IMG/VR virus record: IMGVR_UViG_3300047550_003625
Span: 1-28,470 of that record
From: a virus
Length of the DNA: 28,470 bases
Strand: one strand, 5' to 3'
Shown: one piece after another, positions 14,042 to 27,774 of the stretch
Layout of the letters: each line of letters opens with the position of its first letter
Position numbering within the stretch: the first letter of the stretch is position 1
Made by a program: the position numbers and the translations under genes
Notes under the pieces: model-generated
Told to the model about the DNA's origin: nothing
Seen by the model: the letters and a program-made list of their open reading frames with translations, nothing else
Databases searched by the model: none

Positions 14042-14724
14042 TTCCGATTCGCCCGTTATACAGGTATGAGGTGCTCACTCGGTATGACGGGGCTGAGGGC
14101 CGCACTTATGGTGATCAAAAGTTGCCTAGCGTGACGCGCATTCTGGATGAAACCAAGGACAAGGCAAAATTAGAGGAATGGAAACAACGCGTTGGGGAAG
14201 AGGAAGCGGAGCGCATCAAAAACAATGCAGGTGCCGTTGGAACATATATGCATAGTGTGATTGAGCGGATGGTTGCTTTCCGAGACCTGGGTCGGCCCAC
14301 AAACTGGGAGATGATCAAAGGCTACGAAATGGGCTATCGCTTGATCAATGAGCAGTTTAAAGACATTGATGAGATCTGGGGCTCGGAAGTCACCCTGTTC
14401 ATCCCGAATCGCTATGCCGGGACCACGGACATGGTGGGGAAGTACAAAGGCAAGTCAGCGATTATTGACTTTAAGCAATCTAATAAGCCTAAACGCCATG
14501 AATGGATCACGGATTACTTTCACCAGCTCTCGGCCTATGCGCTTGCGCATGACTATCAGTTTGGCACGGAAATTGAGATGGGTGTGGTGATGATGGCGAT
14601 GCAATCCGGTGGTACGCAGGTCTTTACGACCACCGGACGGGAGTTTAACCAATATAAGACCGGCTGGCTTGAGCGCGTGGAGAAGTACTACCGCAACACG
14701 GCATCAAACGGGAAAAGCTTCTGA
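14029..14724 (+). CDS. PD-(D/E)XK exonuclease, Cas4/RecB-like
   Basis: This 231-residue protein has the RecB/Cas4-type nuclease pattern: GTYMHSVIERM with H75, SEV (E120), YAGTTDMVGKY with D134, AIIDFKQS with D147 and K149, and YFHQLSAYAL with Q166. This layout fits a metal-dependent exonuclease core; no cysteine cluster typical of many Cas4 proteins is present. In phages such enzymes often degrade one strand for recombination or process DNA ends. It is translationally coupled to the SNF2-like helicase (13-base overlap), suggesting the two act together. Its 3' end overlaps, on the opposite strand, the last 37 bases of the large virion gene at 14688-18005. No terminator is seen after it. Confidence 0.9.
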   Translation: MVDLIPIRPLYRYEVLTRYDGAEGRTYGDQKLPSVTRILDETKDKAKLEEWKQRVGEEEAERIKNNAGAVGTYMHSVIERMVAFRDLGRPTNWEMIKGYEMGYRLINEQFKDIDEIWGSEVTLFIPNRYAGTTDMVGKYKGKSAIIDFKQSNKPKRHEWITDYFHQLSAYALAHDYQFGTEIEMGVVMMAMQSGGTQVFTTTGREFNQYKTGWLERVEKYYRNTASNGKSF

Positions 14725-17700
14725 AGCATTTCCCGCGCCTGGGGCTGCGGTTGACCTTGGGCCTGGGGGCGTCCTGGTTGAGGGCGCTGCGCGAAACTGC
14801 CTAACAAACCACGTGATGGGGGTGCAGCGGGCAGTTTACGTTGTAAACGTTCAGCCGCTGCTTGGGCCATGGTCGGTGGTGCGGGCTGCTCGGGCTCTTG
14901 TTCACCGGCGGTAAGGCCCGTGTTAATCAAATAGCCATCAAGCGTTCTTGCAAACCTAATCTTGTCCTGCTCTGAGCGACCTTTTCGGAGCAACTGAACC
15001 ATAAAGCTCGGGTCTTGGGCAGCACGTTCTAACAACTGACGCACGCTTTCGTTAGGCATCCGATCAAGCATATCCCGCATCATGCGTGATCCGGCAGATG
15101 CAGCCAGTAGTGTTGATCCACCTTCAGCAAGCCCTGCACCCATACGAGCCCCGACCACACGAAGCACAAGATCTTCAACAAGATCGGAGTTTTCAAGTAC
15201 CTGATCAAGAACTTGTTTGTTACCCATTACCGACTGAACGCGTGACATCTCACCAAGAAGCTTTTTGACATTGGCAAGTTCACCACGTTGCATGACGCCT
15301 GTGTCGATGAGTATGTCGCCCATGGAGGGTCGTCCCGTGGACGTGGGCTTAAAGAAAGCATCGTAATACTGCTGGAAGTCCAACTTATCTGCGCCGCCCG
15401 CTTTCATGTAGGCGTAGTCGTAGATGCCTGACTTAAGCGCATCGACAAGATCTTGATTGACCTGCGTGCTTACCTCAACGCCACTGGCTTTAAGGCGTGC
15501 GATCTCTTCTGGGCTTTTCATGCCCGTGCGTGCAGCCTGCACAAGACGGCGGAAGTTTTCTGCTGGGTTTTTGCTATTCAAAGCATCCGACACAACACGT
15601 GCTGGATTCTCGTCAAAGAACTTAGTAAAGGTTGCTTGTTTCTTAAGCTTAGTTTCAATAGCGCTGTTTTGCTTTTGGATTAGATCCAATGCGTTTTGCG
15701 CGCGCGTGGCATTCTCAAGATCTTGACGTAACCCAGGGATGCTGTTCACCAGGACTTCGTTTTCGTTCAACCAACGTGACAGCCGCGCCGTATTGAGTTT
15801 TCCCGTTGCGGGATCGATGGCACTAGCGGCGGCAAGACGTGTGCCACGTTCAACAGCATCGGCTGTTGACACGACACGCTCGCCCGAGCGGTTGACGGCA
15901 TCTTCAAGGATCCTGGCCCGTGGGTCATTAGGTCCGAAGTCTGCAACGTATTGATTGTGCAAACGAGGCAGCATATTAACCGCGTTTTGGATTTGCTCCA
16001 TGCGGGCGTTGATGACATCGGCGTTGCCGCTAAAGGCCCGTGAGACAAGGATCTCGGGGATAATACGATCCGCTCCAGTGCGCGTCACACCACGCATGTC
16101 TCCCGCAAAGGTGCGGGTAAAGCTGTCGTTGAGTTCCTTGGAAAAGGCCCGCGCTGCATCGTAGGCAGGATTGCGAACCTGATCCATGTCATCGAGCAAT
16201 GCTTCAGAGAACTTGGAGTAGAAGGCGTAGTTAGCGCGCTCGCCTCTCGCTTCTGCGTCCATGGCCAAACGAAGCATGTCGCGACGTGCATTGACCAAAT
16301 CGCCTACGTTGATCGCGCCACGACGGACAAAGTCTTTGCCTGCTTCAATAAGCTCTTTCTTTGTGTCTTCGACCTGTCCTTTCATGCCCGCATAAGACAG
16401 GTCTTTCCTTGTGATGGTTGAAAACTGGCGTTGAAGCGTTTGATAAGCGTCGTACAAATCAGGGTTGGACTCTTGACCAAACTTCAACAACTGGTCAGGT
16501 GTGAGATTTTTGACATTCTGTGCTTTAGAAAGACGTCCGTAGATGTCTTTGACGATTGCAGGAAACTCCCGGTTATAGTACTCGGGGGACATCTCCGATC
16601 GGATCGCCTCAAATTGCCTACTGAAGTTGCTTGCAACAACTGCCTGCCCATCGGTTAGGCGCGCAACCGCAGCACGGATTTGGTCTTCGCTCGCCCCCTG
16701 CTTTTTCATGCGGGTGACAGTCTCGTCAATCTGAGCGCGGATTGCCTTGGGCACGTCGGTCCAAAGCGTGTGCTCCACTTCGCGAGCGTCTTTGAGTGCC
16801 CCATCAACATTTTCGCGAATGATGCGACCGATTTGCATGCGATTAGCTGGCGAATCTTTCGTGATACCGGCAATGGCAACCGCTGACCGTGCATCGGCAT
16901 TAGCCAAACGGCTGTCAAGAAGTTCCTTGAAGTAATCAGCACGCAAACGAGCAGCGTCTTGCAAAGCGGTGGGATCACCCGATCGATTCAAGAGGTTGAT
17001 CATCTCAACGATTGCCTCTTGCGCTTTCTTGCCCTGCTCAGCAACCTTGGGCCCGAAGACGTCATTTTGCCTAGCCAGTGATGTTTCAAGAATCGTTAAA
17101 GGTAAATCGCCAGTCTTTTGAGCAGCGGTCATTCCAGGCACGATCCCTGGGGCGCGCAAACTTTGGATTAACTGAGGGAGATAGTTGTTATTGAATTCAT
17201 CTGCCCAGCGCTCTGGATCTGATTGTCGCAGCTCCGGTTTGTACTGCTCTTGCATGATTGCCATGAGGCGATTAGCCGCCCGGTTTTCTCTCTCCCCCGC
17301 AGAAAACCGAGAGACGCCTCGTCGAACCAGATCGGCAACGGGCATGGTTGCCATGGTGACAAGTTTGGTTGGATTAAGCAGTCCGCCTACCACCTCTCCA
17401 GTTACTCGAGATATCGTTTCTCCAGGCGCTAAAGTTTCTGCTGCGCCTGCGCCAACACCTGATCCAAAAGAAGCCTGTGTTTCAAGAGCCCCATAAAGAA
17501 TCGGGTGTTGCTTAGCAAACCCACCTACTTTATTCAAAAAGTCTAAAACGCGAACACCTGTGGATGGGTTGATGGTGTAGCCCAAAGGCAAAAAGGCAAG
17601 ACCGCCGCCCGTAGTCTTTCCAGCTTCACGAAAAGGCTTTAAGTCTGGGTCGGTCTGCTCGTCAAAGAGGCGCTTAGTGGTCTCTTCACCAATCTGTCCG

Positions 17701-18005
17701 CCACCAATGAGTCCTGCTCCAGCGCCAAGCAAAGTGCCAGCCACTGTTGTATAAGGTTGTCCAAAAGGAATTCTTGAGCTTGCTGCAAAGCCTGTGCGTG
17801 CGCCACCGTAAGCGCCGAGCGCCGCAGGCGACTGGCCAACAAGGCCTTCAACTAAGCCTCTAGCGTATTCCGAGGCGACATCACCAATTCCAGGCTGGAC
17901 GCTCGCATCACGAGAAAAACCGCTTATGTCCTCAACAGGAGTTCCTGTTTCCGTAGCGCCAGCAGGACGCGAAATGTCATCGATACTAAGCGGTTTATCT
18001 GCCAT
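14688..18005 (-). CDS. Large internal virion (ejection-type) protein, 1105 residues
   Basis: This is the largest protein of the window and the last gene of the virion block. Residues about 60-110 are Gly/Ala-rich and hydrophobic (TVAGTLLGAGAGLIGGGQIG), which may let the protein enter a membrane. The middle 700 residues are long helices with many charged residues, and the last 70 residues are Pro/Gln-rich (PQPGRPQAQGQPQPQ). This layout and position resemble podovirus ejection proteins that leave the capsid with the DNA. I see no lytic transglycosylase motif, so cell-wall activity should not be assumed. AGGG precedes the ATG, nine bases from the upstream stop. It could alternatively be a polymerase-like or scaffold fusion, but nothing supports that. 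Confidence 0.6.
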   Translation of the reverse strand: MADKPLSIDDISRPAGATETGTPVEDISGFSRDASVQPGIGDVASEYARGLVEGLVGQSPAALGAYGGARTGFAASSRIPFGQPYTTVAGTLLGAGAGLIGGGQIGEETTKRLFDEQTDPDLKPFREAGKTTGGGLAFLPLGYTINPSTGVRVLDFLNKVGGFAKQHPILYGALETQASFGSGVGAGAAETLAPGETISRVTGEVVGGLLNPTKLVTMATMPVADLVRRGVSRFSAGERENRAANRLMAIMQEQYKPELRQSDPERWADEFNNNYLPQLIQSLRAPGIVPGMTAAQKTGDLPLTILETSLARQNDVFGPKVAEQGKKAQEAIVEMINLLNRSGDPTALQDAARLRADYFKELLDSRLANADARSAVAIAGITKDSPANRMQIGRIIRENVDGALKDAREVEHTLWTDVPKAIRAQIDETVTRMKKQGASEDQIRAAVARLTDGQAVVASNFSRQFEAIRSEMSPEYYNREFPAIVKDIYGRLSKAQNVKNLTPDQLLKFGQESNPDLYDAYQTLQRQFSTITRKDLSYAGMKGQVEDTKKELIEAGKDFVRRGAINVGDLVNARRDMLRLAMDAEARGERANYAFYSKFSEALLDDMDQVRNPAYDAARAFSKELNDSFTRTFAGDMRGVTRTGADRIIPEILVSRAFSGNADVINARMEQIQNAVNMLPRLHNQYVADFGPNDPRARILEDAVNRSGERVVSTADAVERGTRLAAASAIDPATGKLNTARLSRWLNENEVLVNSIPGLRQDLENATRAQNALDLIQKQNSAIETKLKKQATFTKFFDENPARVVSDALNSKNPAENFRRLVQAARTGMKSPEEIARLKASGVEVSTQVNQDLVDALKSGIYDYAYMKAGGADKLDFQQYYDAFFKPTSTGRPSMGDILIDTGVMQRGELANVKKLLGEMSRVQSVMGNKQVLDQVLENSDLVEDLVLRVVGARMGAGLAEGGSTLLAASAGSRMMRDMLDRMPNESVRQLLERAAQDPSFMVQLLRKGRSEQDKIRFARTLDGYLINTGLTAGEQEPEQPAPPTMAQAAAERLQRKLPAAPPSRGLLGSFAQRPQPGRPQAQGQPQPQAREMLQKLFPFDAVLR

Positions 18006-18013
18006 GACAATCC

Positions 18014-20023
18014 CTAATTGCGGACTTTAAATTTGTTTTCTGGAACATACAAAAATTCTGTTCCAGAAGGAAGCGCTCTTGCTTGTTCGACGGTATAAAC
18101 GCGCACAGGAATCCCAATCATTTGTCGAATTCTCCTGACCTCGCTGATTTTCTGTTCAGCTTCTTGCCTTTTAGTAGCGCCTATGTTTGCCTCACCTGAT
18201 CTTGAAACAGCGCCCTGTTCAATTCCTGCAATGACATTGTCCAAAGCAATCAACCTGTTTTGGAAGGCTTCCGGTCGATCAATAAATCGAGGCAACACGC
18301 TCAAGTCTTTTAAAATGTCTTCTCGTTCTGCGTTTGAAAGACGAGTAGTCTCTTGAAGTCCTTTGACCATTTGAGCAACAGAGTTCTCGATCTCAGTTTT
18401 CGACTGTTCATACTTTGGATCAACAACACCGCCTACGATAGGAATCCTTGAAATGCCTGCGCGAAGCATATTCAAAGGTCCGGTGCCCGTTGAAGCAAGT
18501 CGATAAAGATTCGTCGGAACAACCTGTCCAGGCTGAGGAGCAGGAGCTCCTTGAGCCGTGGGCACTGGCGCAGCAGCCGTTGAAGCTGCTGCGGGAGCGG
18601 CACCTGGGGCTGTGGATGCAGCAGGGGCAGCAGCCGCTGGCGCGGTAGCCGTGGGCCTTGATCCAAGGGCCTTGGCCCGTGCGATGACAGCGTTTTGTAG
18701 AAAATCAGGCAGCGTGTTTTGGGTAGTAAAAGGCCTTTCTTTTTGCGTTTGCGGGTCGTACATCATTACCGTTTTCGGTTGGGTGTAGTCCCTAATCGCA
18801 AACTCAAGCTGCGTAGTCTGAGGCGTGTCTTCTCCAGCAGCAAAAGCCTCAACCAAAGGTTTGTTTGACATCAGCTCATTCATCTTGGCGGCTGTCAAAC
18901 CCGTACTGGGCTTCGGCGCATTAGCCCTTATGCGTGCAGTCTCTTCTTGCGTTTCACCACGAAGAATGCCTAGACCAAGCTGCTGCAACATGCCTTCACG
19001 TTTTAACAAAGCGGCACGCTCCGACTCGCGCTCTTTCTCTGCGGCCTGGATGCCTAAGAGCTTGATCTGTTGCGCCATCTTCTCTGCTTCCGAAGCACGC
19101 GCACCAATTTGCGCCGGAAGCTGGCTAGCAGCGCCCGCAAGACGAGCAGCGAAAGAGCCTCTCAAAGGCTGGCCTGTCCGTGGATCCACATTTCCGGCCA
19201 ATGCAAGGCCTGCTCCTGCAATATCAAAGAGCATTTGAGCCTGGATCAGGCCCTTGTCTTGCCCAAGCAACTTTTGATACATCTGCGTCGCATCAGCTAC
19301 GCGAGACTCCATGGTCTTTGTACTGGCGGTAGCCGGAGCAAAGACATTAAACAGGGCCTTTTTAGCTGCCTCACGTTGTTCAGGAGTCAACAGGCGAGAG
19401 GCAATGCCTGTGTCCGCCACTGCCCTCGAAGATGGCTGATTATCCTGGGCTTCGACGCCATCTTCATCGGAGCCATCACTAAAATTTTGGACATACCCTC
19501 CCCGAGCCATACCCATCGGGGGCTGTGGTCCTTGGGCCATGGGCAATGAACCAATGCCCCCTGGCGGCATGGGTGGTGGACCCGGAGGCATTCCCGGAGG
19601 CATTCCCGGAGGCATTCCCGGAGGCATTCCCGGAGGCATTCCCGGAGGCATTCCCGGAGGCATTCCCGGAGGCATTCCCGGAGGCATTCCCGGAGGCATT
19701 CCCGGAGGCATGGGCTGTTGGCCTGCAAGCACGGGCTGTAGCAACGCAAGTACTTCAGGAGGGGTTTGCTGCGCAGCGTTGTAGCCTACCATGTCAGCAA
19801 GCTCCTCGAACCGCGCATCAACCGAGCGAACATCGCCTCGTAAGTTATTCATGAGGATCTCAGGCGAATCAGGGCGTCTGTCCATGAGCTTGGCTATGTC
19901 AGACTCATCCCCCTCGTCCTCCATATCATCATCTTCACCCATCAAAATAGACATGATCCCGACTTCATCGGGATCCATTTTTCCGCCCTTGAACAAGGGC
20001 CGATCTAACACTTTTGACTTCAT
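18014..20023 (-). CDS. Virion-associated protein with PPGM tandem repeat
   Basis: This 669-residue protein begins [11 protein letters not shown] chose this ATG because AAGGA lies six bases upstream, while a closer ATG abuts it. An acidic segment ([14 protein letters not shown], about 29-42) is followed by a helix. Then comes an uninterrupted (PPGM)10 stretch at residues 106-145 and the motif PMGMARGG at 169-176. The rest is helical, with Ala/Pro-rich low complexity around residues 460-520. Order and style match large virion proteins of podovirus-like phages, but no catalytic domain is apparent. The Pro/Gly tract may be a flexible linker. The gene lies between two other large virion genes, separated by short gaps. 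Confidence 0.6.
19581..19710. repeat. 12-bp tandem repeat encoding PPGM, ten full copies
   Basis: CCCGGAGGCATT (plus-strand phase) is repeated ten times without a mismatch (19581-19700), followed by a partial copy. Because the unit is four codons, copy changes keep the reading frame. Perfect identity at the DNA level points to recent slippage or unequal exchange, or possibly assembly compression or expansion. Confidence 0.97.
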
Positions 20024-20033
20024 TGTCATTCCT

Positions 20034-22664
20034 TTATCCAACAAGCCCTGTTCTCGCCGTTCCTGTTCCTGCACTTGATAAACGGCTCATGCCAGCAAGG
20101 GTACCAAGCCCCGCAATACCAAGCCCTGCGGCAGTCTGGAAGGGGCTTGCAGAGGGCATGCTACTTGCAATCAAGGAGCTTTGCGTGCTGGGTGCGCCGC
20201 GATAAATATCAGAAACAAAACCTAACTGCTGGAACGGAGCCATCGTATCCATCATGGATGTTGCTCGGATGGCATCAAGCTGCGCCTGTCGATTAGCCTG
20301 TTCCATCGCTCCAATACCCATCATCGCACTTACATCGGCTTGACCCAGCTGTGTTGCTGCTTGGCCCAAGGCTCCTTGCTGAACGCCCAACTGCCCAATG
20401 CCCTGGCCCATTTGGCCCAACGTACCTGCACGCTGAAGGTCGATGCCTGCACGTTGCGCGGCTAATCCTCCAAGGCTCTGGCCCAGAGTCCCGTAAAGCC
20501 CTGCACGTTGCGCATCAATAGCCGCCTGCGATTGAGCAATTTGAGAAGGTAGCATGCCCCCCAATTGAGCCTCTTGTCCAGACAACGCGCCGTAGAGTTG
20601 CGCGCCTGCTTGTCCTAATTGGGTTTGTTGCAAGGCTTGTTGACCATACAGGCTTCCCAGCCCCTGTAATACCCCTGCCTGTTGAAGCCCCTGGGCTTGT
20701 TGCGTCTGTTCCAGTTGCGCCATTTGCATGGCCGTGTTCGCATCAAAACCCGCTTGCTGGAAACGCTGCGCAGCGGCTTGAAGTCCAAGGCCTGCTTGAG
20801 TTCCAGCAGCGCTTAATTGCCCTTGCCCAAGGGCTTGACGAAGGCCCGCTGCCTGTTGGGCGAGTTGAGCCCCTTGAAGACCATACTGTCCCTGCAAAGC
20901 TTGATTGGCTAACGCAGCTTGTTGTTGAAACTGAGCATTTTGCAATGCTTGGTTGTAGCCTGTTTGCTGGTTTGCCAAAGCGGCTTGAAGGGCAGATTGT
21001 TGGTTCATGCCCGCCGCTTGCAAACGATTTGCTTCAGATTGAATGCGAGCTTGTTGCTCGTTTGTCAAATTAGCTAAAGCAGTTTGAAGGCCTGCTTGAG
21101 TGCCTAATTCTTGGACACCTAATTTAGCAGCGAGGTTTTGTTGATTAACCGTAACGTCTCGCTGCTGGTTAGCAAGCGCAGTTTGCATTGCAGCTTGCTG
21201 GTTCATACCCGCTGCTTGTAAACGATTTGCTTCAGATTGAATGCGAGCTTGTTGCTCGTTGGATAAGTTGGCTAATGATGTTTGTAATCCAATCTGCCCC
21301 GCGCCTAATTGCTGCACCCCAAGCTGAGCAGCTAAGTTTTGTTGCCCAACGGTTAGACCTGCCGCTTGATTGGCTTGCTGTGCAGCAAGGCGAGCCTGTT
21401 GTTCTGTATTGAATTGCTGTTGTGCCTGTTGGTAAGCTTGTTGCAGCCCTTGCGCTTGAATATCGCCAAGCTGCGTTGCAAGATTTCTTTGCGCCTCTGC
21501 TTCAACGACGCCTTCTCTTGTTCCACCAAAGGCCCCTGCACGAATTGCCTGAGCAGCACGGCCCTGCCTTGCAATATCTGCTTGACGCTGTGCTTCACGT
21601 TGTTGAATCGCAACCACGTTCTGCATGTAGGGCGACATCATGCCTTCTGCGGTTCCTGGTGCGCCAAAAGACTGCGTCGTTACTTGCTGTGCAGGGCCCA
21701 TTTGAAATGTTTGTAGCTGAGGGGCATAGCTTGTTTGAGCTGCGGACAACCCCCCTACGCCTACCCGTTCTGGTGCAGCAACGTCCCTAACAGACCCCAT
21801 TTGAAACGACTCTAAGTTAGGCTTAAACCCCGTCTGTGCCGCACTAATGTCCCCCTGTCCTACACGCTCTGCACCAACTCGATCAATGCTAGCTATCGAT
21901 GCTGCTGTAGCGGTTGGCGCTTGTCCAAGTTTTGCAGCCGCCTGAGCCTGATCCGCCGCTTGTTGTAAAGAAGCAATGCCTTGTGCAAACTCGGGCCTTG
22001 AGGCCGCAGCCGCTGCTTCCCTTGAGGCTAAAGCCGCCGTGCCTTGTGCTCCTGTTAAGAATCCCCTTTCTTCCGTAAAATTTGAAGGAACTGCCGCAGA
22101 CGCAGTAGTTGCTGCTTCATTCTGGTATTTATTTGCTTGGCTTAAATCTGCCTGAAGATAGTTAGGCAGGATTTGCCGAGCGTATTGCAGACCACCAATC
22201 CCGGAACGAACTTCATCAAGACCTCCACCTGCGGTGGTGCTGTAGCCCGCCATCAAGTCAGCCGCACCAAGACCTCGACTAACCGCTTCTTGAGCGCTTA
22301 AGTATTCAGGCGCAACATTAAGATTTCCGGCAAGATTTGCCGCTTGTTGTGAAAGCGTTTGTCCTTGAGTAAGAGCCTCCGACCCAGCTTGTAAATAAGG
22401 CTCGTAGGCTCCAATGCCTTGCCTTGCCAAATCTGCTGCTTGGATCTGGCCTCTTGATTCTCCTGCTACCTCATAGGCAGGGAGATCCAGGGGCATGTTG
22501 TAGAGCTGACGCGCCTCTTCAATCAAGCCCATCCGATAGGCCGCGACCCTTGGATCTTCTGCGGTGTAGCCTACTTGATATTGGACATTAGGCCCTGCCG
22601 GAAGCCCTGTCAGAGGCCCTGTAAGCTCTCCGGGTCTTGCCGATAACCCTGTTGACGTGCTCAT
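20034..22664 (-). CDS. Gln/Ala-rich repetitive virion protein, 876 residues
   Basis: The protein is dominated by Gln, Ala, Leu and Gly and is likely helical or coiled-coil for much of its length. The segment SPYMQNVVAIQQREAQRQAD, with RAGAFGGTREGVVEAEAQR after it, is a pattern I associate with structural proteins of uncultured aquatic phages. A 66-67 residue unit (starting VGQQNLAAQLG and VNQQNLAAKLG) occurs twice in tandem. The C-terminal part contains shorter imperfect units with LGQ and QRAG. AAGGTG precedes the ATG, three bases from the upstream stop. Likely an internal virion or tail-associated protein; function is inferred from context only. Confidence 0.6.
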   Translation of the reverse strand: MSTSTGLSARPGELTGPLTGLPAGPNVQYQVGYTAEDPRVAAYRMGLIEEARQLYNMPLDLPAYEVAGESRGQIQAADLARQGIGAYEPYLQAGSEALTQGQTLSQQAANLAGNLNVAPEYLSAQEAVSRGLGAADLMAGYSTTAGGGLDEVRSGIGGLQYARQILPNYLQADLSQANKYQNEAATTASAAVPSNFTEERGFLTGAQGTAALASREAAAAASRPEFAQGIASLQQAADQAQAAAKLGQAPTATAASIASIDRVGAERVGQGDISAAQTGFKPNLESFQMGSVRDVAAPERVGVGGLSAAQTSYAPQLQTFQMGPAQQVTTQSFGAPGTAEGMMSPYMQNVVAIQQREAQRQADIARQGRAAQAIRAGAFGGTREGVVEAEAQRNLATQLGDIQAQGLQQAYQQAQQQFNTEQQARLAAQQANQAAGLTVGQQNLAAQLGVQQLGAGQIGLQTSLANLSNEQQARIQSEANRLQAAGMNQQAAMQTALANQQRDVTVNQQNLAAKLGVQELGTQAGLQTALANLTNEQQARIQSEANRLQAAGMNQQSALQAALANQQTGYNQALQNAQFQQQAALANQALQGQYGLQGAQLAQQAAGLRQALGQGQLSAAGTQAGLGLQAAAQRFQQAGFDANTAMQMAQLEQTQQAQGLQQAGVLQGLGSLYGQQALQQTQLGQAGAQLYGALSGQEAQLGGMLPSQIAQSQAAIDAQRAGLYGTLGQSLGGLAAQRAGIDLQRAGTLGQMGQGIGQLGVQQGALGQAATQLGQADVSAMMGIGAMEQANRQAQLDAIRATSMMDTMAPFQQLGFVSDIYRGAPSTQSSLIASSMPSASPFQTAAGLGIAGLGTLAGMSRLSSAGTGTARTGLVG
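20952..21350. repeat. Tandem direct repeat of about 200 bp in the Gln-rich virion gene
   Basis: Two copies of a unit of 201 and 198 bases (about 21150-21350 and 20952-21149) encode 67 and 66 residues. The core QQARIQSEANRLQAAGMNQQ is identical in both, and flanking parts differ by several substitutions and one codon indel. Substitutions show the duplication is older than the perfect PPGM repeat. Confidence 0.8.
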
Positions 22665-22667
22665 GGA

Positions 22668-24773
22668 TTACACCTTACGTTCTTCAAGCATTTTCATCAT
22701 GGAATAAAGGCGTTTTGCGCCTTTTTTCCGAGATCCGTTACCGAGATTTCTTACTGCCTTAGCGGTAAACACAAATTCCCCATCAGACAACAAAGCCGGA
22801 ATCGAGTCCGAGGTCCCTGTTCCAGGGCCATTGATGTGTCCTTGCTTGCGCGGGTAGGTTGTTCCACCCATCTCTAAAGCCATGATACCGCCCTGTGCGT
22901 AGCCTGGAGGACGTCGAGGCGCATAGCCCCTGGATCCTTGCAACCCGCCAAAGGTCAAGGGTTTTGCATAAGCTGGATTTGCAAAATCAAACGCGGCCAT
23001 GTTGGGCGCAGCGGCGGGGGTTTCTTTGAATCCTCCTCCCAAAGCCATTGCACCAAGGCCAAGTGCCGCAGCAGGACCATAGGTGGAGAGAATCCCCGGT
23101 GTCCCTGCTTTTATAACAGCATCGTAGGCCTGTCTAGCAAGGAAAGGACTTTTACTGCTTGCCATTTCTGCGTTGAACGCGGCCTTGGCTTCTTCGATGA
23201 CTTTTGCCGGAACTGCACCTCGACTGCCGCCAAGGGCCTCGGGCATGTATTTGTCATAAAGTCCAGCGGCTTTGTCATAAAGCCCCGAGGCTTGGTCCAT
23301 CAACGAAGGTGGGGGCGGAGGAGCGCTACCACGACCATACCCAATTGATTCAAACTCCATGCCTTGACCGAGTTGCGCAGGAACCGATTGCGCAGGAACC
23401 GGCACTTTGTAGGCATCTGGGTTAGCGATGCTCACACGCCTAGCTATGGGATCGCTTAACTCAGGCGCTGGACCTGCTGACATGGGAGGCGGGGGTCCCA
23501 TGCCAGGGCCTTGCATGGCAAATTGTCCAAGATCCCCGGTTCCTGGAGCAGCAAAACGGCCTACTCCAGAATCATTCGCTAAGGCCTCATTTAACACATT
23601 AAGTCTTGTTTGATGGGTGCTTCCAACGGGGTACCCCCTGTTTAGCGTCGTCGGATCTATCTCACCAATAGAGGCTTGATAATCGCCTATAACTTTTTGA
23701 TATTGATCAATAGGGGAAAAGGTATTGCCTGCCATTGGCACACGAGCGGCATCAAACTCCATGCCTGGAACACGTGGAGCTAGAGGGGCCCCAACGACAG
23801 TGTCAGCCGCAGGAGTTTGAGCAGCGGAATCAAGAGAAGGCAGCGCAGCAGGAGCCGTATCAACGGGGGAAACCAGGGTTTCTGCCCCCGCAGCGGAAAT
23901 TGGCGCAGGGGCTTGAGCAGATGCAAAAGCATCTGCTCCGCCCATAATACCGGCAGTTGCACCTGCGGTAACACCCCCTATGGCTCCTGCTTTTATGGCC
24001 TCTCCGATATTTTTACCCTGCAATATTGCAGTCCCTGCACCTCCTACAAACCCACTAACAGCAGCAATTCCTGCGGTGGAGGTAACTCCCATAAACCCAG
24101 CTGCTGCGGGGCCTATGAAAAACCCAAGCGCGATGGGCAGGACAATCCTGCCTATACTACTTTGAGCAAACTTTTTAACCGCATTGCCGATAGATTTAAA
24201 AAGCTTGCCTAAGAAAAACTCAGGCAATCCTGTTACAGGATTGATCGTGCCGCTTCCTCCACGGGCCTTGAGCAATGCGGCTTCCTCAGGGGTGATGTGT
24301 GCAAGCATCGTGTCGCCAAAACGACCATACTGCGCCAGATCTGCAATGCCGCCACGCGCCATGCCCATCGGAGCAGGTTGCTCAACGGTCAAATAATCAA
24401 GCGCCATGTTCAACGCGACAAAGAACATCGGATCAAACTGCGCAGGCAGGATGTCCTCAGGAATACCCTGCTGCATATACTGACGACGAATTCTTTGATA
24501 ATCCTGAGGCGTGTACAGGATTTCATCAACCATCTTATTAAGCAACATGAGCATGTCCATGGGGATGGACTGTGCACGCAACTCATCCACAAATTCCTTA
24601 ACGGCCTGTGGATCGGCCTGCATCGCCCCACTGAGCAACTCATCGCTAAATTGCTTAGGAGGAACTTGCTCACGAAGCTGTTCAAATAACGCCTCTTCCT
24701 GGGGGTTGGCCCGTGGTTGAGGTGCTGCACCTCCTATTTGAGGGAGCGACATAATGCCTTGCATTTCTTCCAT
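22668..24773 (-). CDS. Virion structural protein with conserved GPGTGTSD C-terminal motif
   Basis: This 701-residue protein ends with a segment seen in many phage structural proteins: KQGHINGPGTGTSDSIPALL, then SDGEFVFTAKAVRNLGNG. Residues 135-142 are PMGMARGG. Residues about 209-250 are hydrophobic and Gly/Ala-rich (PIALGFFIGPAAAGFMG), followed by GEAIKAGAIGGVTAGATAG, which suggests a membrane-inserting region. The middle is Pro-rich low complexity (GPPPPMSAG, APPPPPSL). AGGAAAGG lies upstream of the ATG. Position between small tail-type genes and ejection-type genes fits a virion or DNA-delivery role. The conserved C-terminal motif has no function I can name. Confidence 0.65.
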   Translation of the reverse strand: MEEMQGIMSLPQIGGAAPQPRANPQEEALFEQLREQVPPKQFSDELLSGAMQADPQAVKEFVDELRAQSIPMDMLMLLNKMVDEILYTPQDYQRIRRQYMQQGIPEDILPAQFDPMFFVALNMALDYLTVEQPAPMGMARGGIADLAQYGRFGDTMLAHITPEEAALLKARGGSGTINPVTGLPEFFLGKLFKSIGNAVKKFAQSSIGRIVLPIALGFFIGPAAAGFMGVTSTAGIAAVSGFVGGAGTAILQGKNIGEAIKAGAIGGVTAGATAGIMGGADAFASAQAPAPISAAGAETLVSPVDTAPAALPSLDSAAQTPAADTVVGAPLAPRVPGMEFDAARVPMAGNTFSPIDQYQKVIGDYQASIGEIDPTTLNRGYPVGSTHQTRLNVLNEALANDSGVGRFAAPGTGDLGQFAMQGPGMGPPPPMSAGPAPELSDPIARRVSIANPDAYKVPVPAQSVPAQLGQGMEFESIGYGRGSAPPPPPSLMDQASGLYDKAAGLYDKYMPEALGGSRGAVPAKVIEEAKAAFNAEMASSKSPFLARQAYDAVIKAGTPGILSTYGPAAALGLGAMALGGGFKETPAAAPNMAAFDFANPAYAKPLTFGGLQGSRGYAPRRPPGYAQGGIMALEMGGTTYPRKQGHINGPGTGTSDSIPALLSDGEFVFTAKAVRNLGNGSRKKGAKRLYSMMKMLEERKV

Positions 24774-25192: not shown

Positions 25193-25900
25193 TCAAAAAG
25201 CCGAAACGAAGTTGATGGTTAAAATGACCGAAGGGATCTCTGGCCGAGTGGGCGAAGTTCCTGCTGCATAGTGCTCTAAATACACATCAAGGCTATCGGA
25301 CCACCATGCAACCTCAAGATATTCGGTTGCCGGATTGTTAATGGTAAAAATACCTGTGATTGCCGGAACAATATGCGTCCAAATATTGGCACTTTTACGT
25401 GCGGCAATGTCAAAACGCGTGTTGCTTAGGGCAATATTACTTCCGGTGTTTTTAAACCACACTTCAAACTCTGCGGCACTTGTACCACGATTGGTTACTT
25501 GAAGGGTAAAAGTAACAAGATAGTTCCCGGCACAAGGTACTTTAATACGACTATTACTAGTTACGCTGATGCCATTGGCAGGAGAAACACTATCGTAGGT
25601 TATAAGGTTTTCTGCGGTTATGCTTCCATTTGTCTGATCCGTTTCAGAAACAATCATTGCATAAGGTAATGCAATCCCATTACTAATTTGGGCTCCACGG
25701 ATTCCGGCAGAAAACCCCGATCCTCCGGGCGTAGGGCCAAACCAATTAAGCGCTGCTGCTTGGTTTTGATCCAGCACGGAACCGTAGGTGTTATTAAGCT
25801 GAAGAACAACTTGTTCAAGCGATCGAATGAGCTGGTTGAATTGCTCTGGGCTGTATTGTTGAGAGGCGTTTGGAAGCCTGACGTTAAATATCTTGCTCAT
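25193..25900 (-). CDS. C1q/jelly-roll-like tail or fibre protein
   Basis: The first 40 residues (NVRLPNASQQYSPEQFNQLI, then a helix with LEQVVLQLNN) are typical of phage tail proteins that attach through an N-terminal helix. The C-terminal 120 residues resemble C1q/TNF-type jelly-roll domains: IKVPCAGNYLVTFTLQVTNR, EVWFKNTGSNIALSNTRF, EYLEVAWWSDSLDVYLE and SVILTINFVSAF at the end. Such domains form trimers and can bind receptors. The ATG overlaps the previous stop by four bases (ATGA). It probably acts at the virion surface; the exact ligand cannot be inferred. Confidence 0.75.
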   Translation of the reverse strand: MSKIFNVRLPNASQQYSPEQFNQLIRSLEQVVLQLNNTYGSVLDQNQAAALNWFGPTPGGSGFSAGIRGAQISNGIALPYAMIVSETDQTNGSITAENLITYDSVSPANGISVTSNSRIKVPCAGNYLVTFTLQVTNRGTSAAEFEVWFKNTGSNIALSNTRFDIAARKSANIWTHIVPAITGIFTINNPATEYLEVAWWSDSLDVYLEHYAAGTSPTRPEIPSVILTINFVSAF

Positions 25901-27774
25901 CGCAACCCATCAGGCTGAATGTCCACCCGCATCGTGCCGTAGCGCCAGTTGGTGTCTACCGCATCACTCTCGATGGTCAAGCTAATCTGCCTGCCCCGTG
26001 CCCGAGTGTCAATTTTTTGTGTAGTAGGAGTTACCGTATAAGGATCCAAGGTACTTGGCACAGCCGTCGCCTGTGGATAGGCACGCAATCTCAATCGCAC
26101 CGTGAGATCACCCAATTGATTTTTGAAGTCAGGAATAAATCTGCTCATGAACATCATTTGATCGCCGTCCCCGATATCAAAATACCCTGAGACGATGTAG
26201 GAAAGAATCGCTGCACCGTTGCCGTTATAGCCGTCTTCCTGGTTAAAAAGTTGAGCACGCCCAGCAGTTAACCCATAAATCGTGGTCAAGGTGGACTCAG
26301 TCCCATTGGGGTCGTAATTCGTTGCAAGCGGCTTGTCAAAAGTGCCAATGTCTGCCCACGCGGTCCGAGACAAACTGCCCACGGACCAGACGTTTTCAAG
26401 ATAGTTGTACGTTACAAAGCGATCAATATACTCTTCTCCCGCCGTGCAATACCACCACGTCACTTCGTTAAATTGCGCATTAACACCTGCATGAACCTTT
26501 GTAGCCTGTATAAAGTCTAAATCTTTAAATACAAAATCTTGTACAGTACAAGGCAGCTTTTTGACCGTGCCGTCAAAGACATAAAAAGCTTCCGTGCTCA
26601 TCCAATAGGCAACACCATTGACGTCCACAGCAGCATGTGGACCAATGCACCCGCAGTTAGCCCCTAGCTGTTGAAAGCCGAATGTGTAAGGAGGCCCAAC
26701 ATACTGTTGACCATGAATGGATGTATCAGTCCAAATTAAAATCTGGCCCCGTGATCGTGTTGCAGTAACAATAAAACTTCCGTCTGTTAAACGTTGGCCT
26801 CCCGCCGTGTTTGTTGCACTTTCTACAAACTGATTGCGGTCCTCTTGGTTTGAAAAGCGAACAAGCATGGGGTCTTGGGTCGAGGGTGTTCCTACCGTAG
26901 CCTCTGTTCCAAAGCAGACCAAATGCCGATCCGGCGTAGAGACCAAAGCGTATTTGCTCTTTGTAGGTGCGCCAGAAATAGCGGAGGCCCGTGTTCCAGT
27001 GCCCACAGAAGGGCTCCACTCGTAAATGCCTCCATCAACAAGCTGTGCAATCAACAGCTCCCCAAAAACATCAAACTGCCAGACACGAGAAAACAACGTA
27101 AGCCCTGCGGATGCTGAACGCGGCGTTCCCCAAGTGCTCAAGCCCCAAGTGCCTGTGCCCCAACCAAAATCGTTATAGCTTACGTCAGAGCCTACATTAA
27201 TCTGGTATTGCCCAACGACTGAAGCGCCTCCATTGCCTACATCGGATGCGTTTGCATTGACGGGTGCCGTGATGGTGTAACTGTTTCCAGTGAGCACTTC
27301 AGTGATTTCAAACTCAGACTGTAAGATTGCCTGGGTAATATTGCCTCCTGCTCCAAGGCCGTTGGCGTTAACACCACTAAAGGTAACAAAATCCCCGGTG
27401 ATTGCGCCATGACTTGCGTCTGTGACTGTAATGATGGGAGAACCCGTGGTCGCGGCGAAGGTCACATCGCCTGCGGAAGTCGTAGCTCGTATGGGCGTTA
27501 AATCAAACCAAGCCCCACCGTAAAAAACATAAAGCTTTCGGTTTGTGCCTAATGCTGCATAGGGTGCCCCATCCAGGTCATTCCAGGTAAAAACCTCACT
27601 TACTGCCCCCACAAAATAAGGAGAGGTGACATTAAATTGAGTCCATCCGCCTAATTTTTCCGGCAGGCCATAACGAAAGCGGATATAGTCGCCATCGATC
27701 CACCCGCCTTCAGCGCCGTATTCTGTGTTTTGTTTGTCAATCCCTGGTTTCAGGAACAATCGCATTAAAGGCAC
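25897..27774 (-). CDS. Phage stabilization/tail hub protein, P22 gp10-like
   Basis: This 625-residue beta-rich protein starts with FLKPGIDKQNTEYGAEGGW and IRFRYGLPEKLGGW. Repeated Trp/Gly/Tyr blades follow (WGTGTWGLSTWGTP, DRHLVCFGTEA, GQILIWTDTS, VNGVAYWMSTEAFYVFDG), suggesting a beta-propeller. That architecture matches P22 gp10-type packaged DNA stabilization proteins, which seal the portal and carry the tail; direct sequence identity to P22 gp10 looks low. An inserted domain at about residues 95-175 (VTFAATTGSPIITVTDASHG) resembles Ig-like modules. The start is GTG, six bases after GAGG and three bases past the lysozyme stop; an ATG at codon 4 is an alternative. Confidence 0.65.
   Translation of the reverse strand: MPLMRLFLKPGIDKQNTEYGAEGGWIDGDYIRFRYGLPEKLGGWTQFNVTSPYFVGAVSEVFTWNDLDGAPYAALGTNRKLYVFYGGAWFDLTPIRATTSAGDVTFAATTGSPIITVTDASHGAITGDFVTFSGVNANGLGAGGNITQAILQSEFEITEVLTGNSYTITAPVNANASDVGNGGASVVGQYQINVGSDVSYNDFGWGTGTWGLSTWGTPRSASAGLTLFSRVWQFDVFGELLIAQLVDGGIYEWSPSVGTGTRASAISGAPTKSKYALVSTPDRHLVCFGTEATVGTPSTQDPMLVRFSNQEDRNQFVESATNTAGGQRLTDGSFIVTATRSRGQILIWTDTSIHGQQYVGPPYTFGFQQLGANCGCIGPHAAVDVNGVAYWMSTEAFYVFDGTVKKLPCTVQDFVFKDLDFIQATKVHAGVNAQFNEVTWWYCTAGEEYIDRFVTYNYLENVWSVGSLSRTAWADIGTFDKPLATNYDPNGTESTLTTIYGLTAGRAQLFNQEDGYNGNGAAILSYIVSGYFDIGDGDQMMFMSRFIPDFKNQLGDLTVRLRLRAYPQATAVPSTLDPYTVTPTTQKIDTRARGRQISLTIESDAVDTNWRYGTMRVDIQPDGLR

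What the first reader, a model, noticed from the sequence alone, without database searches (positions are those of the whole stretch)
18014..24773. Identical octapeptide PMGMARGG in two unrelated virion proteins
The motif occurs at residues 169-176 of the PPGM protein and 135-142 of the GPGTGTSD protein, each after an N-terminal helical part and before a different body. A related YAQGGIMA sequence occurs near the end of the second. The DNA encoding the two copies differs, so this is not a recent copy. It may be a shared docking or proteolytic maturation signal for proteins packed into the capsid.
Basis: partly seen in the sequence, partly recalled or inferred. Interest (0 to 1): 0.5.

Follow-up and report, generated by a model that had tools for sequence, protein, structure and literature searches.

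The report
Shared tag in phage injection proteins
Two otherwise unrelated proteins that this bacterial virus probably carries inside its particle share a short, strictly conserved peptide that also turns up in other proteins thought to be injected into the host, so it may be a tag for loading or anchoring such proteins.

Summary
The octapeptide is real and at the stated residues. It is an exact match around a shorter conserved core, roughly [MF]A-x-GG. The core is held in 18 of 18 aligned P0002 rows and 11 of 12 P0001 rows, while x, the codons and the flanks vary. In P0002 relatives it precedes an invariant block (GDTMLAHITPEEA...GGSGTINP) at spacings that look like whole helix turns. A second copy precedes the GPGTGTSDSIPA element of tape-measure proteins, where the JBD30 authors predict an anchoring 'hook'. 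Across 11 phage record sets the motif concentrates in P0001 and P0002 relatives and in proteins encoded near portal and terminase (37 seen, 3.8 expected), not elsewhere (2 seen, 5.9 expected). Seven fresh records repeated the enrichment (24 vs 2.1) but not the depletion (7 vs 4.5). Several portal-side carriers are polyvalent-type (ART-PolyVal, PcfJ), a class predicted to be packaged and injected. I read it as a docking motif of capsid-internal, ejected proteins; a purely structural cap is the main rival, and cleavage is less likely. Presence in the virion, binding and cleavage are all unshown.

The parts
18014..20023 (-). P0001, first motif-bearing protein (669 aa from the ATG at 20023; the GTG at 20074 gives 686 aa)
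   Evidence: all 12 aligned homologues begin MKS[KR]V
19715..20023 (-). P0001 residues 1-103, conserved N-terminal part (about 78-99% identity in BLAST segments that cover all of it)
19577..19711 (-). P0001 (PPGM)n Pro-rich linker, variable among homologues
19496..19519 (-). PMGMARGG copy 1 (P0001 residues 169-176); family form GMAxGG[PYL]-V-(V)Q-x-F-xxG
20034..22664 (-). P0003, neighbouring Gln/Ala-rich protein without the motif; weak match to phrog_4287 'DNA ejection protein'
22668..24773 (-). P0002, second motif-bearing protein (701 aa); relative annotated 'tail tape measure protein' in DSL-LC04
24348..24371 (-). PMGMARGG copy 2 (P0002 residues 135-142)
24219..24362 (-). N-module of P0002 (residues 138-185): MAxGG[ILV]A.., short spacer, GRxGDTMLAHITPEEAxxL...GGSGTINPxTGLPE
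   Evidence: invariant columns
22878..22901 (-). YAQGGIMA (P0002 residues 625-632), further A-x-GG copy
22731..22841 (-). GHINGPGTGTSDSIPALLSDGEFVFTAKAVR... tape-measure-type C-terminal element (residues 645-681)
   Evidence: PHROG tape-measure matches; JBD30 and Douge tape-measure chains
14688..18005 (-). P0004, next protein of the cassette, no motif; relative annotated 'DNA transfer protein' in DSL-LC04

Best explanation
PMGMARGG is two instances of a conserved short motif, about [MF]-A-x-G-G followed by I, L, V, P, Y or an acidic residue, reused in proteins that phages of this group probably load into the head and eject with the DNA. In P0002 it opens a compact module (motif, a short helix whose length changes in whole turns, then GDTMLAHITPEEA...GGSGTINP), and a further copy opens the tape-measure-type GPGTGTSDSIPA 'hook' at the C-end. 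In P0001 it sits between a variable Pro-rich linker and a VQxFxxG continuation. In portal/terminase-side proteins, some of them polyvalent (ART-PolyVal, PcfJ), it lies at protein ends and domain borders. The mechanism I think most likely is docking: an exposed peptide is bound by a common partner inside the procapsid or portal/tail, which loads these proteins or holds them until ejection. Shown: conservation, gene-class concentration, module context. Inferred: that the proteins are in the virion, that a partner exists, and that it is a capsid, portal or core protein.
For: Core invariant in 18/18 P0002 rows (M138, A139, G141, G142); G175 and G176 in 12/12 and GMA in 11/12 P0001 rows, with x variable and wobble bases free. 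The motif-containing query gave 64 of 64 (14 duplicates, 2 unmatched dropped). Spacing to the D of GDTMLAH is 11, 15 or 18 in 64 of 64 and 53 of 55. Class pattern, seen/expected: P0001 relatives 8/0.74, P0002 relatives 15/1.50, portal/terminase neighbours 14/1.52, portal 0/0.22, TerL 1/0.06, all other 368 proteins 2/5.86, one of the 2 an ART-PolyVal protein. Repeat on 7 new records: 6/0.24, 9/0.90, 9/1.00, 0/0.44, 0/0.06, other 282 proteins 7/4.52. Carriers with PF18760 ART-PolyVal (E 2.4e-14, 4.1e-14, 2.1e-38) and PF14284 PcfJ (5.2e-9, 6.3e-8). In six of 16 distinct ART loci A-x-GG follows the ART domain directly ([DV]IT[MK]A[KN]GG), and all six records hold a DSL-LC04-type portal gene. Marine relatives HTVC027P and 023Pt_psg01 hold GGR[VI]G-type motifs in the same three gene classes. 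Iyer et al. 2017 (PMC5512222, passages) predict that phage polyvalent proteins are packaged and injected.
Against: P0003 and P0004, encoded between and beside them, lack the motif. Many ART-PolyVal proteins lack it after the ART domain: 10 of 16 distinct loci, some cut off by the contig end, and four of the records concerned (G018, G020, G024, G028) also hold the portal gene. More distant relatives lack the class pattern: HTVC023P, HTVC104P and CRP-902 are at or below chance and Venkman's copies are scattered. The portal-neighbour class was noticed in the same data that scores; only one search is a fresh test, and there 'other' proteins were not depleted. Some P0001 relatives have MKDGG or MYKGG, so Ala is not strict, and one has lost the motif. 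No binding partner was identified, and AF2 places both motifs in low-confidence stretches, which fits a linear motif but shows nothing.
Confidence: 0.45

Rival explanations
1. Structural cap only. A-x-GG is the flexible, strand- or helix-starting cap of small modules (the GDTMLAH module and the SDSIPA hook) that were reused among phage proteins by domain shuffling; it binds nothing itself.
For: Spacings of 11/15/18 look like whole helical turns after GG. In JBD30 the FASGG lies, by my count on the alignment, at 1019-1023, and the authors' predicted hook begins at 1022. In GB2A MARGG abuts GPGTGRSDSI. The GDTxLA...GGxGTxNPxTGL part alone occurs in a terminase-side protein of G036 and in Venkman.
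Against: P0001 and the ART-type proteins carry the motif without either module, and a mere cap would not be expected to be so concentrated by gene class.
Confidence: 0.27
2. Processing site. A phage or host protease cuts at or near GG during head maturation or after injection, separating domains of P0001, P0002 and the polyvalent proteins, as GG-specific proteases of some animal viruses do (recalled).
For: The motif lies between domains and next to protein ends; a variable third residue with fixed A and GG resembles a protease site. P1 DdrB is reported processed before packaging (PMC5512222, passage).
Against: Pro follows GG in 5 of 8 distinct P0001 motif DNAs, which most proteases reject at P1' (general knowledge). 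No maturation protease was recognised among the 25 of 49 Pfam families displayed for 58 of the 85 annotated DSL-LC04 proteins (the other 24 families were not shown). An HslV-like protein of DSL-LC04 gave no match in 12 records. Conserved helical spacing after GG is unexplained.
Confidence: 0.15
3. Low-complexity coincidence: Pro/Gly/Ala/Met-rich linkers produced the same eight residues by chance, with local convergence in this phage.
For: In the survey both proteins carry exactly the same GMARGG only in the window phage and its near relatives L020/L003 and L023; elsewhere the two proteins differ at x or in the flanks.
Against: The five-residue core is conserved over relatives of both families, and the 8-mer is above local-composition shuffles (2 of 200 reach it).
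Confidence: 0.08

Closest known systems
Tape-measure-protein C-terminal 'hook' (JBD30 gp46, PDB 8rk3; PHROG 23013, 6090 and others)
   Same: A-x-GG followed by GxIxGPGTGTSDSIPAxLSxxEF; authors predict residues 1022-1066 form a hook that anchors the protein in the baseplate after C-terminal cleavage (PMC11445458, section 16 read).
   Different: P0002 is encoded in a podovirus-type ejection cassette with no long-tail genes in view, has another module from residue 138, and shares the motif with an unrelated neighbour.
Phage T4 internal proteins with a capsid-targeting sequence cut by the prohead protease (recalled, no paper read)
   Same: A short shared peptide on several unrelated head-internal, injected proteins.
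   Different: The T4 signal is N-terminal and cleaved; here the motif is mostly internal or C-terminal, and no protease or cleavage is known.
Polyvalent proteins (Iyer et al. 2017, PMC5512222; abstract and passages seen)
   Same: Several portal/terminase-side carriers have ART-PolyVal or PcfJ domains.
   Different: P0001 and P0002 have no such domains; in the main text 'GG motif', 'glycine', 'linker' and 'short motif' do not occur.
P22 ejection cassette gp7-gp20-gp16 (recalled), with a P22 gp10-type stabilization protein upstream
   Same: Gene order: stabilization protein, then P0002, P0003, P0001, P0004; relatives annotated 'stabilization protein' and 'DNA transfer protein'.
   Different: No sequence match of P0001 or P0002 to such ejection-protein families was found in Pfam, PHROGs or NCBIfam.
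Phage DSL-LC04 (OR003939, proposed 'Dishuiviridae', PMC10611076 passages)
   Same: Closest named genome: relatives of P0001, P0002 and P0004 and of the stabilization protein (68.7%), same order, same motif core in both proteins.
   Different: A metagenome-assembled genome; no protein data.

Membership tests
Tape-measure proteins with SDSIPA hook | C-terminal GPGTGTSDSIPA element | tested here: met
   Six PHROG tape-measure profiles match within residues 622-680, E 7.9e-9 to 5.2e-5; JBD30 6.7e-7, Douge 1e-4
Tape-measure proteins with SDSIPA hook | Encoded in a long-tail gene set and setting tail length | not testable with these tools
   The 28-kb window lacks the head and other tail genes; the neighbour is a podovirus-type stabilization protein, which argues against it
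T4-type capsid-targeting sequence | Located at the N-terminus | tested here: not met
   Residues 169-176 and 135-142
T4-type capsid-targeting sequence | Cleaved by a prohead protease | tested here: inconclusive
   No protease recognised among the families displayed for DSL-LC04 (25 of 49 shown, 58 of 85 proteins scanned); cleavage itself not testable
T4-type capsid-targeting sequence | Shared by several unrelated head-internal proteins | tested here: inconclusive
   Shared by P0001, P0002 and portal-side proteins; head location unproven
Polyvalent proteins | Recognised polyvalent domains (ART-PolyVal, PcfJ and the like) in P0001 and P0002 | tested here: not met
Polyvalent proteins | Same domains in other motif carriers | tested here: met
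   PF18760 in G009, L257 and L258; PF14284 in DSL-LC04 and G007. Not found in the carriers of G004, G006, G033 or G039, and below the cut-off in G001
P22-type ejection proteins | Sequence relationship to gp7, gp16 or gp20 | tested here: inconclusive
   No clear match; P0003 weakly to phrog_4287 'DNA ejection protein' (4e-4)

The most novel reading that the evidence does not exclude
A-x-GG is a general cargo tag of a large freshwater and marine group of podovirus-like phages. One receptor in the procapsid (portal, core or scaffold) recognises it, so any protein that acquires it, structural or effector (ART, PcfJ), is packed and injected. It would be a modular loading code that lets these phages swap injected effectors.
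Probability: 0.28. Interest if true: 0.8.

Novelty: new variant of a known kind. Interest (0 to 1): 0.5.

Why it matters
How podophages choose which proteins enter the head with the DNA is poorly known outside T4-like and giant phages (recalled). A short motif that can be read from sequence and that links structural ejection proteins with predicted injected effectors would let one predict injected proteins in uncultured phages, and would make the loading question testable with a few residue changes. Even if it is only a structural cap, it defines a reused element shared by podovirus ejection proteins and siphovirus tape-measure hooks. I saw no mention of such a motif in the passages of the three papers looked at for it. 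Searches for peptide strings (883 papers, 30 listed, unrelated words as far as listed) and for packaging-signal terms (1 paper, unrelated) found none; that is a thin basis for 'not in print'.

Tried and rejected
Exact octapeptide as the unit: rejected, because x and the flanks vary independently in the two families. Duplication of one module inside P0002 (N-module against C-module): hhalign found only the A-x-GG stretch, probability 4.9, pairwise E 0.008, so I do not claim it. P0001 motif against P0002 N-module by hhalign: probability 89.6, pairwise E 1.9e-6 over 12 columns. AlphaFold models: mean pLDDT 49.8 and 52.8, motifs in low-confidence parts; fold searches gave nothing at E 0.001 or better. 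Solved structures: P0001 nothing credible; for P0002 only tape-measure chains, and in those papers the element itself is not among the resolved residues (Douge 1658-1699; JBD30 last 33 residues). A looser [MFY]xxGG count over named phages is near chance in most of them, so that pattern is not useful. Plasmid ART-PolyVal relatives (8 records) were listed but their motif content was not read. Of the C-module loci, 39 of 80 did not match my regular expression and were not judged; 34 of the 41 distinct rest have A-x-GG within 50 residues upstream.
Full report
The observation. P0001 (window 18014-20023, minus) and P0002 (22668-24773, minus) both contain PMGMARGG, at residues 169-176 and 135-142, encoded by different codons. 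It is the only 8-mer shared by any two of the 28 non-overlapping window ORFs; block shuffling that keeps local composition gives 0.01 on average and 2 of 200 shuffles reach one. The related YAQGGIMA is at P0002 625-632.

Where it lies. On the minus strand the order is: P22 gp10-type stabilization protein (25897-27774; phrog_3287 'virion structural protein', E 2.1e-86; relatives annotated 'stabilization protein'), two small proteins, P0002, P0003, P0001, P0004. The closest named genome is Phage DSL-LC04 (OR003939). Its stabilization protein is 68.7% identical, and its P0002, P0001 and P0004 counterparts are annotated 'tail tape measure protein', 'hypothetical protein' and 'DNA transfer protein'. 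The paper that describes it proposes a family 'Dishuiviridae' (PMC10611076, passages). The cassette looks like one for internal or ejected virion proteins; that is inference from neighbourhood, with no proteomics.

Conservation. In 18 aligned P0002 relatives M138, A139, G141 and G142 are invariant while residue 140 is R, G, M, Q or K. In 12 P0001 relatives both glycines are invariant and GMA is present in 11; L008 has a short deletion. In the first survey 22 of 22 P0002 rows and 14 of 15 P0001 rows, some from the same contigs, hold MAxGG. Synonymous positions vary: among the 13 distinct P0002 motif DNAs the second glycine uses all four codons. More distant P0001 relatives keep MA[RK]GG[LY]VQ (G003, G004, G008, G009) or the looser MKDGG / MYKGG followed by [YL]VQ[RH]F (G035, G036, G006). 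One (G005) has diverged.

The module in P0002. Residues 149-185 are the most conserved part of the protein. A viral-contig scan with a query that contained the motif gave 64 distinct modules in 80 loci (14 duplicates and 2 without the regular expression dropped), all 64 with [MF]A-x-GG[LIV] upstream. A second scan whose query excluded the motif gave 56 distinct modules in 80 loci (22 duplicates, 2 unmatched); 55 have A-x-GG and one has SEGG. The distance from GG to the aspartate of GDTMLAH is 11, 15 or 18 residues in all 64 and in 53 of 55; steps of 4 and 7 suggest a helix lengthened by whole turns (inference). The later half of the module also starts a terminase-side protein in G036 and occurs near the start of a Venkman protein.

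The C-terminal copy. P0002 ends in the GPGTGTSDSIPA element found in tape-measure profiles and in the tape-measure chains of phages JBD30 and Douge. In JBD30 the sequence reads FASGGHIKGPGTGTSDSIP. Its authors predict residues 930-1021 unstructured and 1022-1066 a hook of two helices and a hairpin, and speculate about cleavage at 1066 and anchoring in the baseplate (PMC11445458, section 16 read). By my count the GG is 1022-1023. GB2A has MARGG directly before its GPGTGRSDSI. Among 41 distinct C-elements in 80 fetched loci, 34 have A-x-GG within 50 residues upstream and 7 another GG; 39 loci did not match my expression and were not judged.

Gene-class pattern. With the expression [MFY]A[^G]GG[^G] over 568 ORFs of eleven record sets (the window; DSL-LC04; G001-G004, G006 and G008; parts of G005, G007 and G009): P0001 relatives 8 seen/0.74 expected by shuffling (8 of 10 proteins), P0002 relatives 15/1.50 (9 of 9), proteins within 6 kb of portal or TerL 14/1.52 (8 of 167), portal 0/0.22, TerL 1/0.06, other 2/5.86 (2 of 368). 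Because I had already seen the portal-side cases, I repeated the same test on seven records whose whole sequence had not been read before: P0001 6/0.24 (5 of 7), P0002 9/0.90 (7 of 8; the eighth is the G036 terminase-side protein), neighbours 9/1.00 (6 of 113), portal 0/0.44, TerL 0/0.06, other 7/4.52 (7 of 282). The P0002 fragments of those records had served to find them, so the P0002 figure is not independent; P0001 and the neighbours are. The enrichment repeats; the depletion elsewhere does not. P0003 and P0004 of the window have no copy.

What the portal-side carriers are. Pfam finds PcfJ in the DSL-LC04 carrier (5.2e-9), whose first 60 residues hold three copies, and in G007 (6.3e-8). 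It finds ART-PolyVal in G009 (2.4e-14; the protein ends MAKGGEVRKPK just after that domain), L257 (4.1e-14) and L258 (2.1e-38), and only a sub-threshold match in G001. The carriers of G004, G006, G033 and G039 have no such domain. An ART scan gave 22 loci, 16 distinct. In six of these (L344, L346, L348, L258, L350, L364) A-x-GG follows the ART domain directly, and all six records hold a DSL-LC04-type portal gene; four records in which it does not follow also hold that gene (G018, G020, G024, G028, the last with the protein cut off). Overall 45 A-x-GG were seen against 20 expected, in 12 of 16 loci. Iyer et al. describe polyvalent proteins as predicted to be injected with the DNA and, in phages, likely packaged (PMC5512222, abstract and passages). 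Marine relatives HTVC027P and 023Pt_psg01 show GGR[VI]G motifs in the same three gene classes, with 9 seen/2.81 expected and 15/5.43 over all ORFs for a wider expression; HTVC023P, HTVC104P, Pag-Yong1, GB2A and CRP-902 are below expectation, and Venkman has 6/2.42 scattered over other genes.

Mechanism. The simplest account that covers P0001 (no module), P0002 (two modules) and the portal-side proteins (ends and domain borders) is an exposed docking peptide for capsid-internal, ejected proteins. A structural cap explains the P0002 modules equally well but not the gene-class pattern. Cleavage at GG|X explains the borders but not Pro after GG in 5 of 8 distinct P0001 motif DNAs or the helical spacing. 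No protease stood out: for 58 of the 85 annotated DSL-LC04 proteins only 25 of 49 Pfam families were displayed, and an HslV-like protein had no match in 12 records. AF2 leaves both motifs in low-confidence stretches, which fits a linear motif without proving it. Nothing here shows a binding partner, presence in the virion, or absence of cleavage.

Verdict.

Noticed in passing
window 19577-19711: (PPGM)n run in P0001 is peculiar to this phage among the 12 aligned rows; homologues have other Pro/Gly/Ala-rich linkers.
   Followed up: partly
window 20023 and 20074: The GTG at 20074 gives a 686-aa P0001, but all 12 aligned homologues begin MKS[KR]V, so the ATG at 20023 is the likelier start.
   Followed up: yes
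window 20034-22664: P0003 is Gln/Ala-rich with an internal near-repeat (residues about 504-553 also align before residue 490) and relatives of very different length.
   Followed up: no
L257 2368-6558 and L258 1-3303: Large portal-side proteins with ART-PolyVal domains whose domain borders carry A-x-GG repeats; L258 has two ART stretches.
   Followed up: partly
L377 1-1554 (G036), minus strand: A terminase-side protein begins with a GDTELAFLSASARDLLKKLGGAGTKNPKTGLREY stretch like the P0002 N-module.
   Followed up: partly
L029 6531-6980: DSL-LC04 encodes a 150-aa HslV-family-like protein (phrog_1040, 1.8e-27) annotated ATP-dependent protease; no match in 12 related records.
   Followed up: partly
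L234 13939-18885: 1649-aa terminase-side protein of G001 with repeated MLQRFADGG and other F/Y-xx-GG motifs and sub-threshold RTX-like and ART-PolyVal matches.
   Followed up: partly
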